Of a DNA stretch of 64,000 bases, positions 35,607 through 60,439 are shown in pieces (position 1 is the first letter of the stretch; every line of letters begins with the position of its first letter). The notes beneath the pieces are model-generated. The model saw only the letters and a program-made list of their open reading frames with translations, did not search any database and was not told the origin of the DNA. Both the position numbers and the translations under genes were made by a program. Source of the DNA: Circinella minor (Eukaryota > Mucoromycota > Mucoromycetes > Mucorales > Lichtheimiaceae); assembly GCA_016758965.1 (NCBI GenBank), contig JAEPRB010000020.1, positions 62,001 through 126,000 of the forward strand. The letters run 5' to 3'.

Positions 35607-38439
35607 ATGACAAGAACATTTGACAATAACGTACCAACAAAGTTCCCAAATCTTCAACCCAAGGCTCCTAATGGAACAGATCTTTTACAAATTGAACGCT
35701 CCAAGGCTTCGTTCGATGTGAATACTTTATCCAAATTTTCATATGGTGAAGAGTTCCTTAATCGAAAGGAGAAGATTTTACGCATTATTGAATCCGATCC
35801 TGCATTTGAAAAATCCCAACGATTTTTTCAGAGTCGTCATGAACGCATGACGCATGCTTATGAAAAAGACAAAAGAACTATTGAACTTTCCGAGTAAGAC
35901 TTTTATCATTTATTATCAATATTACTTTTGATTTTCTGTAGTAAATTATATGTATGAGACATGATAATGGGTAATAATAATAAAAGTTAACAACCATACT
36001 ACATTGATAAATGAATTATATAGGGAATTAGGTTGGGATGATGAAGATCGCCATATTGTTAACTTCCTTTACGATCAACCTAGCCCCGTGAGTTTTTTTT
36101 TTTCATTCACAACGTAATTCGATTTGTATATATAGCTATTAATAACATTTTTGTATACTTCATAAATATAGTATTCGCTTCATTATACCATGTTTGTGCC
36201 AACATTAGCAAATCAATGCAATGAAGAACAGAAGAAGGTGTTTTACGAACGCGCATTACGCCATGAAATTATTGGTTGTTATGCGCAAACCGAGGTACAT
36301 TTGTAACATGTGTATATATATTAATAATAAATTTGTTACTAAAAAAATGAAATCATCCGGTTTCTACGATACTAAAATTTACTACGTATTATTGATATTA
36401 TTATTAGTTGGGTCATGGCTCCAATATTCAAGGTCTTGAAACTACAGCTACTTATATCCCAGAAACCAACGAATTTGAAATTCATTCACCCCACCTTACC
36501 TCATCCAAGTGGTGGATAGGGACTCTTGGCAAGACTGCCAATTATGCTGTTGTTATGGCACGTTTGATTATCCACAGTAAAGATTACGGACCACATCCAT
36601 TCTGTGTTCAAATTCGTAGTTTAGAAGACCATCGGCCTTTGCCTGGAATCACCGTCGGTGATATTGGTCCCAAGTTTGGTTACAATACAATCGATAACGG
36701 ATTCTTAATGTTCGATCACTACCGTGTACCTCATATTTCTTTCCTTGCTAAGTTTTCTCAAGTTAAGCCTGGAACTGGTGAATATGTTAAACCCGTTAAT
36801 GCTCGTCTCTCTTATGGTACCATGGTGCTTACTCGTGCTGGCATTGTCAATGGTAATTACCTTTTATAGTCATCCAGACAACACGTTATAGTATTTTTTT
36901 TTTACTGCTCAAAAAAAAAGATTACTTATGATTACTTTATTATTATAGGAAGTAGTCTCGTTTTAGCACGCGGTGCGACGGTTGCTGTTCGATATTCTGC
37001 TATTCGTCGTCAATTTGTCGATACCGCTGAACCTCGTAAATGGGGAAACGAGATCATTGAAACTCCTGTTATTGATTACACCCAACAACAATATCGTTTG
37101 CTATCCACTGTTTCCAATGTTTATGCAATTCTTTACGCTAGTCAGGATCTTCGTCAACAATATGAAATTAATCAAGTAGAAATGCAAAAAGGCAATTTTT
37201 CGTTATTGGCTGATTTGCACGCAACCTCTTCAGGTTTAAAGGTACATATCATAGTAATTTGTTTAGATTCTCATAATTATAGGTTTTTCTACGTAAATAT
37301 AAGTTACGTACTAAATGCTAAATTGGACCTTTCTAATTTTTGTTATAGTCATTGACCACAACGATGGCATTAGAAGGCCTTGAAGATTGTCGTCGCGCAT
37401 GTGGTGGTCATGGTTTCAGTTTGTTCTCTGGTAACATAAATCATATATATTTACTGCAGTTTAAGATTAAAACTATTAATAATATTGTTTTATTCTATGT
37501 ATTTTTGCTTTAAAAAAAGGTCTGGGGTTTGCATACCAAGATTACTTACCATTTGTTACGGTAATGTATATGTTTATCTCTTTACTGATCATTTTATTAT
37601 TATAATACCTAGCATACAATGTACTAGATAGAACTTACCAAGTCAAATTCTCACTATTATTTTATATTCTATATTTTATATAGTTCGAAGGCGACAACTA
37701 TGTTCTTACTCAACAAACTACTCGTTATCTTCTCAAAACCTTCCGTTCCTTGGTTGCCGGAAAAATATCTACAAAAGCTCATCACCAAAATATGACTACC
37801 ATCTACTTGTCTCAATACCTTCAAAACCCAAATAATACTTGCCCAGCTACCTCTGGTACGGACTTTTTAAGTCCTGAATTGATCTTGACCGCATTTGGAT
37901 TCCGTGCTGCTTATGGTATTGCACAACTTGTTGAAGAACTTGACAAAAACGGTAGCTCGTGGAACTCTGTACTTGTGGACGTTGCTCGTGTTTCCAAGGC
38001 TCACTGTCAATTGGTCATGGTCCAATCTTTCTTTGTCAGGATCCAACAAGCATCGGAAAAAGAATTGCCTGCACCCGAACGCAAAGTCTTGCAATTGTTA
38101 GCTTGTTTGTTTGCTTTGCATACCATGGAAAAGGAAGTTGCTGAATTTTTGGTTTCTGGTTATTTGTCCGCTTCACAATCCAAATTATTAAAGCGACAAG
38201 TTCTTGATTTGGTTGCTCAAATTCGCCCAGATGCAGTTTCGCTTGTGGATGCATTTGCTTTGCCAGATTATTTCTTGGCTTCAGCTCTCGGGCGCTATGA
38301 TGGCAAGGTTTATGAACAATTAGTTGAATATGTGGAAAAGGAACCATTAAATCAAAAATTAGTTGTAGATGGTTATGAGAAATATATCAAACCATTCGTT
38401 CATCGAGGCTTAAAAAGACATAATGATTCTAAACTTTAA
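35607..38439 (+). CDS. Peroxisomal acyl-CoA oxidase
   Basis: Catalyses the first step of peroxisomal beta-oxidation: acyl-CoA to trans-2-enoyl-CoA with FAD, producing H2O2. Exons are read from 35607 through 38439 (first donor at 35,894/35,895; acceptors include TATTCGC, TTGGGTC and GAAGTAG starts). The N-terminal acyl-CoA oxidase domain begins KFPNLQPKAPNGTDLLQIER. The catalytic-core motif LGHGSNIQGLETTATY and SPHLTSSKWWIGTLGK are intact, as are VRYSAIRRQF and GLEDCRRACGGHGFS, with the active-site-region glutamate context TFEGDNYVLTQQTTRYL. The C-terminus is HRGLKRHNDSKL, a classical PTS1 signal (SKL). Total length is close to the usual 660-700 residues. The neighbour at 41.2 kb is an SCP2-domain protein, also with a PTS1-like end. 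A decayed copy lies at 57.7-58.6 kb. Confidence 0.96.
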
Positions 38440-39326
38440 GTAATGTATTTACTTTATTTGTTTTTTGCCAATGTATATTTTTCACATTTATACAATACCA
38501 TATATAGTAACAATATAATATTAATATACAAATACTTATTATGACTAGCTTGTAAATCGCCATAATAAATAAAAAGAACCACGATAGTTAATTTATCATT
38601 ATGTATGATAATATAAATCTTCTATAATTAAAATGATTACTTATAAAGTGTTGTTTTTAGATTTTTCTTTTAAAACTAATTTTTGCATTCAACGTCCTCA
38701 ATTTAAGTAACAATCCTAATATAAGGCTATATTTCTTATATATAAAAAATAATAAAGAAAAAGATACATGTATATAAACCTAATACAGGATTTTGTGGAC
38801 ACAACTCTCGACTTTTTCGCTTATGATAGCAATAATTTTCGCTTAGGATGGTTAATTTTTGTTTTTTTTTGCTTTTGAGCACTTGGTCAATTCCATAAAA
38901 GCAGGTGTACCAAATACGAAAAAAAAAATGGATATCAGTCGCGAAAAACTCCTCCTATCATTTGGGTAAATCTCTAGTCTTCACAAGTGAATCTCAACTT
39001 CGACCTCGTAAGTGAAAAAATCATATATTATAAGCGAAAAAAATTGACATCATAAGCAAAAAAAAAAAAAAAAACTCCCATCATAATCGAGCAAAATCAC
39101 ATATCATAAGCGAAAAAATTGAAGATGAGTGTCCAGAATTGAATGAAAAATCCTGTATATAAAGTCGTATTTTATTCTCTATGACTAAAATAATGAGAAG
39201 TATCATGAAACTTGGTATCTTTAAGCATAGAAATATATTCTTGAAGAGATTAACTAGTACACTACGTTATACCCGATCGCAGCAATAGTAACTGCAGTTG
39301 ATATATAACGAAGATGAAGACAACCA
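38440..39326. other. Convergent region, acyl-CoA oxidase / methyltransferase
   Basis: About 890 bp with no gene. Most of it beyond 38,786 is a TIR element (next entry). The rest is AT-rich 3' UTR. Confidence 0.75.
38786..39155. mobile_element. 370-bp MITE-like element with TIRs and TA duplication
   Basis: The left end begins CAGGATTTT, then GGACAC and TTTTTCGCTTATGATA. The right end, reverse-complemented, begins CAGGATTTTT, then has GGACAC and TTTTTTCGCTTATGATA, with a short insertion between the first and second blocks. TA flanks both sides (38,784-38,785 and 39,156-39,157). The string TTCGCTTA/TAAGCGAA recurs several times inside in both orientations. No open frame is present. It is a different family from the 33.9 kb element but has the same TA-insertion style, so I infer a Tc1/mariner/pogo-derived MITE. 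Confidence 0.75.
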
Positions 39327-53798: not shown

Positions 53799-55192
53799 TT
53801 AGTCGCGATAATGAGGTATATCAAGACCAACATCATTTTCTCTAGTATTTGGTCGTCTAGCAACGTTTGGTTGCTCATTCATTAATGGTTGTTGTTGTTG
53901 TTGTTGCTGCTGCCCTCCTACTCCTAACCCTGTCCCTGTTGGCGCTGGTCCGCCGTTTCGATAGGCTTCGACAGCTGTATCATAAGTAAATAAAGGTGCA
54001 CTGCTTGTATTGGTATTACTACTACTTGACCATCCATATTCACCATTATTACTCGACATTAATGAATGCCTATAGGGATCACCATAGAAATCATCATCAT
54101 AAGAATTACCCGTCTCCATAGGTGATGATAATCGGCGTTGTTGCTGTTGAAGTTGCTCAATCCGCTCGCGTTTTTTCTTTCGGCGCATGAAAAACGCAAT
54201 GGCTGCAATCGCGAGACCAAGACCTGCAACTCCTCCTATGACACCACCAATAATAGCTTTCGTGTTTGGCGAACCTTGTTCAATGGCATCTACCTCAGGC
54301 AGTGTCGGAACGACCGTTCTAAAGATAAAAGTTCAAAGAATAAAAGTTCGTATATATTTAAGAACATTTTTATGAAGATAAGAGATAAAGGATAAAATGT
54401 TTGAATAAATAATAATAATAATAAAAAAGTATCATACACTTGAGAAATAAAAGTTGTGGTTGTTATGGTTTCGCCATTAGTTATTATGACAGTTTCTGAT
54501 GGTACGAGAACAGTAGTCGTGGTAAAGCTTTGTGTTGTTGGGGCTGATGTTGGCTCTGGAGTAGGCTCGTTTACAGTGCTCGTCGGTATTGGATCACTGG
54601 TAGTAGTGATGGTTGGAGGTATATCGGTCGTTGTTGGTGTATCTGTAGGTGGTTGTGTCGTTGTTGAAGGAGAAGGAATATCAGAAGTAGTAGTTGGATC
54701 TACTGTAGCTGTAGGAATTTGTGAAGTAGAAGCATCCTCTGTTGTACTTACAGTTGGGGTTGGATCGGGTGATGTTGTGTCAGGAACAGAAGTGGTAGTC
54801 GGTTCAGGTTCCGAAGTCGTCGCAGGTGGTGATGATATTTCTGATTCTGTAGTGGATGGATTAGGTGGAGAAGACGATGTACTTTCGCCAGGGGCTGATG
54901 TAGTTTCGTCAGGAGGGGGTGCCGTTGTTGTTGGTTCAGTAGAAGGTTCATTATTACTCGAAGTTGGGTCATTAGTTTCTTGTGTTGTTGTTGGTTCAGT
55001 AGAAGGATCATCTTTGCTTGAACTAGGGTTATCAGGTTCTCGTGTTGTTGTTGGTTGATCATCTGGAGACGAGTCTGTCGGAGATGGTCCCGGTGTCTCT
55101 GTAATGGATGGTTCTTCTTCAGCAGATGACATATTAAATAATAAATTATAGTAAAAAAGAGTATTAAGTAAATAAACAAAAAGAATTATCAA
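53799..55192 (-). CDS. Mucin-like single-pass cell-surface protein
   Basis: A 424-residue type I membrane protein, like fungal cell-wall stress sensors in layout but without a recognised sensor domain. Exons: 55192-54438, 54318-53799. With the start at 55192 the N-terminus MIILFVYLLNTLFYYNLLFN is a signal peptide or anchor; the later Met (55132, MSSAEEEPS) would leave none, so I prefer 55192. Residues about 25-250 are Ser/Thr/Pro/Glu-rich with imperfect repeats (EPTTTQETND, EPSTEPTTT) that should be O-mannosylated. A transmembrane helix follows (AIIGGVIGGVAGLGLAIAAI), then MRRKKRER as a stop-transfer signal, and a Gln-rich cytosolic tail of about 125 residues with YDDDFYGDPY. Splicing CAAGT|GTATGA is needed to keep frame into the membrane segment. 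Confidence 0.8.
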
Positions 55193-57661: not shown

Positions 57662-58567
57662 TTAAATTCTTTTTTTTTTGTCGCTTCAAACCAGAATATA
57701 CAAACGGCTTAATATAACTTTCGTCAGTACCACTAACTACAGTGATAAAGCTCAATGATACTCCATATTACGAATTTGAACACAATTTGGACGAGGATCA
57801 TAATCTTTACCATGAATAATCAAATGAGCCATTACAACAGTGTGATTGGCTGATTTTGTTAAGGAACAATCCATCGTTTGGATAATATGAGATGACCAGA
57901 TTAATTTGTTCTCTGGTGTATATAGCTGATGTAGATTTCAAACCTTGAACTTCCGAGCATTGACTCAATTATGTATTATCATTATGTGAAAAGAAATTGC
58001 ATCATATAAATGCTATGAATTATTACTCTGTTACTTTATCTTGTATTAATATTATAATTTAGTACCTATGACATAAATATTATAAACTAAATATACCTCA
58101 GTTGAGCATAGTAACCAATAACTTCATTACTAATTCGCACACTCATAAAATAATTTTTGTTGTTCTTCATTAGATTGATTTTTTCTAAAAGTGGGAATAA
58201 ACATAAGATAATGCAAATTACACTATTGATGTTATTATTGCAATTATATATATATTTAAAAAGACAAAGAAATCGTTTAGATTTTACGTATCTTTTATTA
58301 CCATCGCATCAAAAATATGTGTGTTTATAAATCTACTAAAGGAAAAACAAAAGCTAAAACTAATATAAAAATCTTATTGGAGAAACCTGATCATACAAAA
58401 TATTAATAATCCATTTGTTTTCATCATCCCTGCTCTAATTCTCTAAAACAAGGGAAGTTACGTCTTTCTGCTCTTGGTGAGGTAGCACCATCTGTGATAG
58501 TAGGAGCTGTAACGAGAATTGTTTGCTGTGCAATGGATACTTTTGGCATTGTAATAATAGTTGTCAT
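57662..58567 (-). pseudogene. Decayed acyl-CoA oxidase copy with internal deletion
   Basis: Read on the minus strand this follows the intact oxidase gene piece by piece. A start (MTTIITMPK ... APTITDGATSPRAER) corresponds to exon 1; 58,441-58,379 gives DDENKWIINILYDQVSP against DDEDRHIVNFLYDQPSP; 58,222-58,097 gives NEVIGYYAQ against HEIIGCYAQ and ends at a GT donor; 57,968 onward gives TVVMAHLIIHGKDYDPRPNC against AVVMARLIIHSKDYGPHPFC. Just past IRNMEYH the sequence jumps to SYIKPFVYSGLKRQKKRI, the C-terminus, so the equivalent of most of the C-terminal half is gone. Frame breaks and in-frame stops occur throughout and the SKL signal is lost. Intron positions are retained, so it arose by DNA duplication, not from mRNA. 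Confidence 0.9.
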
Positions 58568-59314
58568 TGATTGTGCGAATAACCAACACTTTTCGCATAC
58601 TATTATTCTTTTTTCCAGTGGACTAAAAATGATAGGCTATTGGTTTTTTTTTTCACAAAAAAAAAGTAAAATAAATAGTGTTGGAATCGATACCATACGT
58701 CGAAATTTCAGGAGCAATACTAACCAAAGCGAGCACTAGTAAATAATAATCATTTTTATTGACAATAGTCGTGTTACAGTATGAGAATGAATATTGCTAA
58801 TGTTACTTTTTGGCAAAGCGATAGTTGATTATATTGGATGAAATTTCATTTAAACTGAGAGCTGATTATTTTTCATGCAAAAAAAAAAAACGTATGCTCC
58901 GATTCCCTCCAATTAAGATAATCCGATGTATGGACATACTCTTCAAATGACTATCAAAGACCATCTGTTGTGTCCTTTATGTCATAAGTATTTTTCTAGT
59001 TTAAATATAATATGTTCCTGCCCCTTAATATACCCGGGTCAGGTAATAGTCACGTATTGCGTACCCCCGTTTACTGTTCATTATTATCAAAACATTTCCT
59101 ATTCATCCATCTTAATGTTTGATGTAGTACAAATAATAATGTCTCAGATTTCATATTATAGCTTGATAATAATTATCCTTATTTTTATCATTCTTCCTCT
59201 TGACAAAACTGTTATATATGACGCTCTCCCAGTATATATTAATAGTAATAATATTGGTTCTTGTTGCAGATGAAAAATAATAATAATAGAAAAGGTAAAG
59301 AATATTGCTTTGTA

Positions 59315-59353
59315 TGTGTGTGTGTGTGTGTGAGTGTGAGTGTGAGTGTGTGT
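59315..59353. repeat. GT/GAGTGT microsatellite
   Basis: A run of GT dinucleotides passes into GTGAGT-type hexamers. It lies about 165 bp beyond the stop codon of the CDK gene. Confidence 0.9.
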
Positions 59354-59518
59354 GCAGATATGAATTGAGTGATTGGATTAAAAAATTAAAAAAAAGTGAG
59401 AAACAGAGAAAACAAACCAAAAATGAATAGAGAAAGACAGAATATAAAAAAAAAAGATAAAAAGGAGATTTACATGAAATGGAAAAAAAAATGGGAGAGA
59501 GAAAAAAAGGAAATATTT

Positions 59519-60439
59519 CTATTCAAACTGTTGTTGCATGTACCTGACTTCTTGGAAATATGGATGGTTCATTGCATCCTTTGCAGATATTCTCAATTGT
59601 GGCTGATATTGAAGCATACGCGACAATAAATCGCGGCCACATGCGTCGACATTTGGCAAGATGGTATTTATATGTTGGGGTGGATAAACAACTTGGTTGG
59701 GTTTATATTCAGGCAATTGAGAAACACCTGGCCAAGTTTGTTCAGTTGGGGTACCCATCATCCGAAAGATCTTTTGTAATTGATCTTCATTGGTCGTACC
59801 TGGAAACAAGGGTCTCCCTGTGTACATTTCTGCCATGATACATCCTGCAGACCAAATATCGATTGATGTTGAATACATCCTTGAACCTAATAAAACATCC
59901 GGTGCTCGATACCATAAAGTGACCACTTCATTTGAAAATGTATTCACAGGAATACCGAACGCACGTGCCAATCCAAAGTCCCCCAGTTTTAATTCAAGTC
60001 GTTTATTAATGAGTAAGTTTTGTGGTTTTAAATCACGATGGAGTACTCGGTTTTCGTGACAATAAGCAATTCCTTTTAAAAGTTGGTACATGAATGACTT
60101 GATGATGGTCGTTTCCAATGCTGTATGACCTGTACGCGCCGTGGCATCCATATATTTTTTCAAATCTTGATCCATGTATTCAAAGATTAAAATAAGTTTA
60201 GATTCAGTATGAATGACATCAATAAGTCGTACAATATTGGGATGCTTGAGTTCTTTCATAAGTGAGATTTCGCGAATAGCAGTGGAAGGGGCACCTTCTT
60301 CGGCATCCAAATGAATTTCCTTGAGCGCGACCATTTCGCCACTAAGTCGACTTTTGCCTTTGAAAACTGTTGCATAGGTACCTTCGCCTAGTTTTTCTAG
60401 TCGGGAGTAGCGTTGATCAGGAGTACCTGTAGTCGACAT
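59519..60439 (-). CDS. pho85: Cyclin-dependent kinase, PHO85/CDK5-like
   Basis: A 306-residue intronless CDK. PHO85-type kinases with their Pcl cyclins control phosphate and glycogen metabolism and cell polarity. The glycine loop is [11 protein letters not shown], the catalytic lysine is in MVALKEI, the cyclin-binding helix is [20 protein letters not shown] (PSTAIRE as in PHO85), the catalytic loop is [53 protein letters not shown]. The [11 protein letters not shown]...[11 protein letters not shown] activation segment, lacking a CDK1-type Thr, and the DLKKYMD motif separate it from CDK1. All catalytic residues are present. In a window where most genes carry many introns, its single exon is notable. 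It is divergent from the AGC kinase with 537 bp between. Confidence 0.95.

What the first reader, a model, noticed from the sequence alone, without database searches (positions are those of the whole stretch)
57662..58567. Inverted, intron-containing relic of the acyl-CoA oxidase with middle-to-C-terminus deletion
The minus strand reads through the same exon order as the intact oxidase at 35.6-38.4 kb, with intron positions kept, then jumps from the segment matching CVQIRSLEDH straight to the C-terminal YIKPFVHRGLKRH. This shows a segmental DNA duplication in opposite orientation, followed by internal deletion and decay. It lies in otherwise gene-poor DNA and would be missed by ORF-based annotation.
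Basis: seen in the sequence. Interest (0 to 1): 0.75.

Follow-up and report, generated by a model that had tools for sequence, protein, structure and literature searches.

The report
Dead fragment of acyl-CoA oxidase gene
A short stretch of DNA in the mould Circinella minor is the broken, intron-bearing remnant of an extra fat-burning enzyme gene: an ordinary dead gene copy, though one that was probably a working gene for a long time before it died.

Summary
On the minus strand, 57,663 to about 58,444 matches the acyl-CoA oxidase (ACOX) gene at 35,607-38,439: exon 2, exon 3 and the first half of exon 4, then a jump to the last ~20 codons of exon 8. Each of these four pieces beat all 200 of its shuffles. 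Introns 2 and 3 are in place, so it is not a retrocopy. It is dead: about six frameshifts, an in-frame stop, two of five splice sites lost, residues ~234-676 missing.

Corrections. No intron or flank homology is detectable, so an inverted segmental copy of this particular gene is not shown. The genome (Circinella minor) has at least four other close ACOX genes, one on the same contig; the parent is unsettled, protein trees favouring the window gene's lineage and some DNA scores favouring the contig-mate. A codon model rejects "dead at birth": it probably lived long as a third functional gene. The locus is not gene-poor; it lies between NADH-oxidoreductase and Pho85/pef1-like kinase genes. It is an ordinary unprocessed pseudogene.

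The parts
35607..38439 (+). Intact ACOX gene, 8 exons (35607-35893, 36024-36087, 36172-36294, 36408-36852, 36949-37241, 37349-37430, 37520-37560, 37684-38439), 696 aa, ends SKL
   Evidence: All 7 introns GT-AG; 100% identical to database protein P0001, INT45_011705 of Circinella minor, on a contig of 325645 bases like C20; Pfam PF14749, PF02770, PF22924, PF01756
58378..58442 (-). Relic exon 2; intron-1 acceptor AG kept at 58444-58443; one extra base relative to the intact exon
   Evidence: (0 of 200 shuffles)
58223..58377 (-). Relic intron 2, about 155 nt; donor GT lost (reads AT), acceptor AG kept
   Evidence: sequence not recognisably similar to either intact intron 2
58097..58222 (-). Relic exon 3; one 3-base insertion, one extra base, one missing base
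   Evidence: (0 of 200 shuffles)
57969..58096 (-). Relic intron 3, about 128 nt; donor GT kept, acceptor AG lost (reads AA)
57755..57968 (-). Relic exon 4, first half (to the segment CVQIRNMEYH), with frame changes of +1, -2 and -1 and a 9-base in-frame loss
   Evidence: (0 of 200 shuffles)
57741..57754 (-). Deletion junction zone; the first codon (57754-57752) is a TGA where both intact genes on the contig have an Arg codon. Residues ~234-676 and introns 4-7 are gone
   Evidence: middle not found in the tested flanks
57663..57740 (-). Relic of the exon-8 C-terminus (SGTDESYIKPFVYSGLKRQKKKNL); the SKL end is not kept
   Evidence: 0 of 200 shuffles

Best explanation
It is an unprocessed (intron-containing) pseudogene of a peroxisomal acyl-CoA oxidase. 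Shown: a DNA copy of an ACOX gene lies on the opposite strand, keeps introns 2 and 3 at the family positions, and has lost the middle of the protein, the reading frame and two splice sites; exon 1 is gone or unrecognisable. Inferred: an old duplication gave a third ACOX on this chromosome, close to the lineage of the intact gene at 35.6 kb; it evolved under protein-level constraint for most of its life, then lost exons 4b-8a (about 1.7 kb in terms of the intact gene) and exon 1 and has decayed since. It has no function as an oxidase, lacking the C-alpha and C-terminal domains, the region that carries the catalytic glutamate (position recalled) and the SKL peroxisomal signal.
For: Segment-wise similarity above shuffles and exon order; intron positions and splice-site state; frame breaks and TGA at 57754-57752; Pfam finds only PF14749 in the frame-corrected peptide (32.8 bits, cut-off 25); placement with the window gene and Phascolomyces P0002, other placements rejected by the AU test (p at most 0.029 and 0.0195, 10 of 13 placements each); dead-at-birth model worse by 7.9 lnL (window-gene topology) or 6.9 (contig-mate topology), and 0 of 40 simulations of it reach the real ratio of 14.15 (maximum 13.12).
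Against: SH does not reject the placements with the contig-mate (p 0.13-0.24) and bootstraps are 52-65. Raw DNA, third positions (83 of 146 against 65 of 146) and the tail score the contig-mate higher, and the codon model prefers it by 0.8 lnL; part of this is AT drift. The model's best neutral phase is zero, at odds with the plain decay, so its dates are rough. The number of stops (one) does not separate the models: 8 of 40 dead-at-birth simulations had at most one.
Confidence: 0.93

Rival explanations
1. Dead on arrival: an incomplete copy of an ACOX gene was pasted in inverted and never worked, decaying from the start.
For: Lack of a recognisable exon 1 would fit a truncated copy; the number of stops is compatible.
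Against: Third codon positions are far more diverged than first and second (identity to the window gene 0.66, 0.83, 0.45); the model is worse by 6.9-7.9 lnL and 0 of 40 simulations reach the real ratio. The model ignores rate variation among sites and composition drift.
Confidence: 0.15
2. The parent is not the window gene's lineage but that of the second ACOX on the contig (C20:190.2-192.8 kb) or its ancestor.
For: Best raw DNA hit; higher third-position identity; the DNA of the tail matches it better (score 45, 0 of 300 shuffles, against 22, 16 of 300); tblastn slightly better for exon 4 and the tail; 0.8 lnL better in the codon model.
Against: AU p 0.007-0.018 and 0.001-0.0195 against it with the protein data; it shares the relic's AT-rich third positions (GC3 0.17 against 0.32 for the window gene; relic 0.21), and at the 15 A/T-only differing third positions where the relic matches one of the two the split is 9 to 6.
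Confidence: 0.25
3. A still expressed, short, differently spliced ACOX-like gene.
For: Some constraint is visible in codon positions; three of five splice sites remain.
Against: About six frame changes, a stop, two lost splice sites, no start exon, no catalytic or C-terminal domain; no database protein of similar length matches the peptide.
Confidence: 0.02
4. Chance similarity.
For: The exon-1 part is at chance level.
Against: Four segments, each 0 of 200 shuffles, collinear and with introns in place.
Confidence: 0.001

Closest known systems
Unprocessed (duplicated) pseudogenes
   Same: Keeps introns, lies near intact family members, has frameshifts, a stop, splice-site loss and a large internal deletion
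   Different: Nothing of kind; flanks and introns too old to show the duplicated unit
Peroxisomal acyl-CoA oxidase (ACOX; Pfam PF14749, PF02770, PF22924, PF01756)
   Same: Exons 2-4a and the C-terminal tail are homologous to fungal ACOX
   Different: Lacks exon 1, the C-alpha domains, most of the ACOX C-terminal domain and the SKL end
Retrocopies (processed pseudogenes)
   Same: Also dead gene copies
   Different: Introns 2 and 3 are present, so it did not come from a spliced mRNA

Membership tests
Unprocessed pseudogene | Homology to a functional gene above chance | tested here: met
   Four segments, 0 of 200 shuffles each
Unprocessed pseudogene | Disabling changes | tested here: met
   Frame changes, TGA and lost splice sites, missing middle
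Unprocessed pseudogene | Introns of the parent at the same positions | tested here: met
   Introns 2 and 3; intron sequence itself not recognisable. All four paralog models examined have these introns, so they do not point to one parent
Unprocessed pseudogene | Duplicated flanking DNA | tested here: not met
   No flank similarity above shuffles; flanks single-copy apart from a microsatellite. Compatible with age, not required
Unprocessed pseudogene | No protein product or expression | not testable with these tools
   No RNA data; no matching database protein
Functional ACOX | Full set of ACOX domains | tested here: not met
   Only part of PF14749 found in the frame-corrected peptide; PF02770, PF22924 and PF01756 not reported at E <= 0.1
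Inverted segmental duplicate of the 35.6 kb gene | Similarity extending into introns and flanks; closest relative is this gene | tested here: inconclusive
   No intron or flank similarity; parent ambiguous

The most novel reading that the evidence does not exclude
The relic is the grave of a third ACOX on this chromosome that stayed functional for a long time in Circinella-like Mucorales and was lost more recently, beside a pef1-like kinase that is itself duplicated on the same contig; the ACOX and kinase pairs may go back to one old intrachromosomal duplication shared with Phascolomyces.
Probability: 0.5. Interest if true: 0.3.

Novelty: new member of a known kind. Interest (0 to 1): 0.17.

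Why it matters
Dead ACOX copies record gain and loss of beta-oxidation genes in Mucorales and mark duplications that gene lists miss. The case also shows that an inverted nearby look-alike need not be a recent copy of its neighbour: another intact gene outside the window competes as parent. Beyond that it is ordinary.

Tried and rejected
Exon 1 in the relic: rejected. The open stretch at 58431-58567 has no detectable relation to ACOX exon 1. A copy carrying flanks or introns: none found. Apparent 3' flank match to the contig-mate (250 bases): the part beyond the coding end is at shuffle level (238 of 300). A TAA at codon 158 is the lost acceptor of intron 3 read as a codon, not an exon stop; it was corrected. 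A second ACOX remnant beside the kinase copy at C20:167 kb: none at tblastn E < 0.2 in C20:42001-216000 outside the three known places (best other hit E 0.24; 181191-186167 reads N). Intron positions as a guide to the parent: useless, introns 2 and 3 occur in all four paralog models. Papers: four searches, listings only seen, none read; 'acyl-CoA oxidase' + 'pseudogene' + 'Mucorales' gave 0 papers, 'Circinella minor' + 'genome' 3, and two wider searches listed nothing on this locus.

Controls that limit the reading: the window gene's 3' flank (23 of 300) and the contig-mate's 5' part (43 of 300) were the nearest to a signal, neither convincing; the C2 exon 1 was reached by 1 of 40 shuffles. 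The tree used 33 proteins: 30 of the 120 listed hits (of 3523 passing) and 3 models of my own from the genome. The simulations used the window-gene topology only.

Full report
What the window is. It is contig C20, bases 62001-126000, of a 46.6 Mb genome in 619 contigs. The intact ACOX protein is 100% identical to INT45_011705 of Circinella minor, whose contig length (325645) equals that of C20; the species belongs to Mucorales, Lichtheimiaceae.

The observation. The intact gene has eight exons and seven GT-AG introns and encodes 696 aa. Its DNA matches 57769-57850 (79%) and 58089-58213 (72%) on the other strand. A spliced, frameshift-tolerant alignment of the protein to the minus strand scores 364 (shuffles: mean 71, maximum 90, n = 24) and finds exon 2, exon 3, half of exon 4 and the end of exon 8 in order. 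Tested one by one, exon 2 (62, shuffle maximum 32), exon 3 (115, 40), exon 4a (172, 50) and the tail (65, 39) are each beyond 200 shuffles; exon 1 (24; 154 of 200 shuffles as good) is not there. Exon 1 of eight paralogs against 58447-59500 gave no convincing match; the best, C2, was equalled by 1 of 40 shuffles. The same method applied to intact paralog DNA scores 296 and 263 for exon 1, so an exon 1 in good repair would have been seen.

Anatomy (minus strand; boundaries read). Intron-1 acceptor AG 58444-58443 kept; exon 2 58442-58378; intron-2 donor GT changed to AT, acceptor kept; exon 3 58222-58097; intron-3 donor kept, acceptor AG changed to AA; exon 4a 57968-57755; TGA at 57754-57752 where both intact genes on the contig have an Arg codon; tail to 57663. 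By alignment there are about six frame-changing steps: one in exon 2, two in exon 3, three in exon 4; two neighbouring losses in exon 4 could be one event. In terms of the intact protein residues ~234-676 are absent. The frame-corrected peptide still scores above the Pfam cut-off for PF14749 (32.8 bits, cut-off 25) and shows no other ACOX domain. The exact deletion point cannot be fixed within 57755-57741.

Parent. The genome holds the window gene and at least four other close ACOX genes (C20:190.2-192.8 kb, C2, C68, C21) plus more distant ones (a capped search). DNA search puts the contig-mate C20:190.9 kb first (86 bits; window gene 72.5). With protein data the relic joins the window gene and its Phascolomyces ortholog P0002 (bootstrap 65 and 58, 52). 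With a mapping agreed by at least 9 of 13 reference proteins, 84 of 135 residues equal the window gene, 83 P0002, 82 Phascolomyces P0005 and 79 the contig-mate. Of 13 placements, the three in the window-gene/P0002 group are accepted and the other ten rejected by AU, but SH rejects only four of these in each (C68 itself, C2, the C2 clade, C21). Third positions favour the contig-mate (83 against 65 of 146), but it and the relic share low GC3; at A/T-only differences the count is 9 to 6. The tail's DNA also fits the contig-mate better, and the codon model prefers it by 0.8 lnL. My reading: an old third lineage near the window gene, parent not settled.

History. If the relic had been dead since birth, its three codon positions should have changed alike. 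Identity to the window gene is 0.66, 0.83, 0.45. A two-phase codon model (constrained, then neutral) beats dead-at-birth by 7.9 or 6.9 lnL; after correcting two border codons the ratio is 14.15, not reached in 40 simulations that include frameshifts and the same mapping (maximum 13.12). Neutral phases up to about 0.16-0.20 substitutions per site stay within two lnL units of the best. The best estimate is zero, which the decay contradicts, so only the upper bound is meaningful. I infer a long working life and a fairly late death.

Duplication. Relic introns, 5' side and 3' side do not resemble those of the intact genes above shuffles, and the flanks are single-copy except a TG repeat. The neighbour at 59519-60439 (a pef1/Pho85-like kinase; names) has a second copy at C20:167.2-168.2 kb (271 of 305 aa identical), with third-position identity 0.564 against 0.556 for the two intact ACOX genes of the contig. 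This suggests an old duplicated block, but gene orientations do not fit a simple inversion and nothing ties the relic to it beyond adjacency.

Verdict.

Noticed in passing
window 38793-39138: Element with terminal inverted repeats of about 86-89 bases (75% alike), just 3' of the ACOX gene; 40 of 67 first-look candidate places were scored and matches lie on many contigs: a MITE-like repeat family (name by recall).
   Followed up: partly
window 59519-60439 (-) and C20:167.2-168.2 kb: Pef1/Pho85-like kinase duplicated on the same contig, 271 of 305 aa identical; the second copy carries a Gln/His-rich insert. Both copies also appear on one contig length in Circinella umbellata.
   Followed up: partly
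window 37431-37519: Intron 6 of the window ACOX gene is absent from my models of the C20:190 kb, C2 and C68 paralogs: gained here or lost there.
   Followed up: no
window about 59269-59366: TG-rich microsatellite that matches 43 other listed places in the genome.
   Followed up: no
G000:C20:181191-186167: Run of N of 4977 bases in the fetched contig, a gap or withheld stretch, next to the second ACOX.
   Followed up: no
window 54290-55192 (-): 300-aa ORF very rich in Thr, Ser and Pro (cell-wall-like low-complexity protein, by eye).
   Followed up: no
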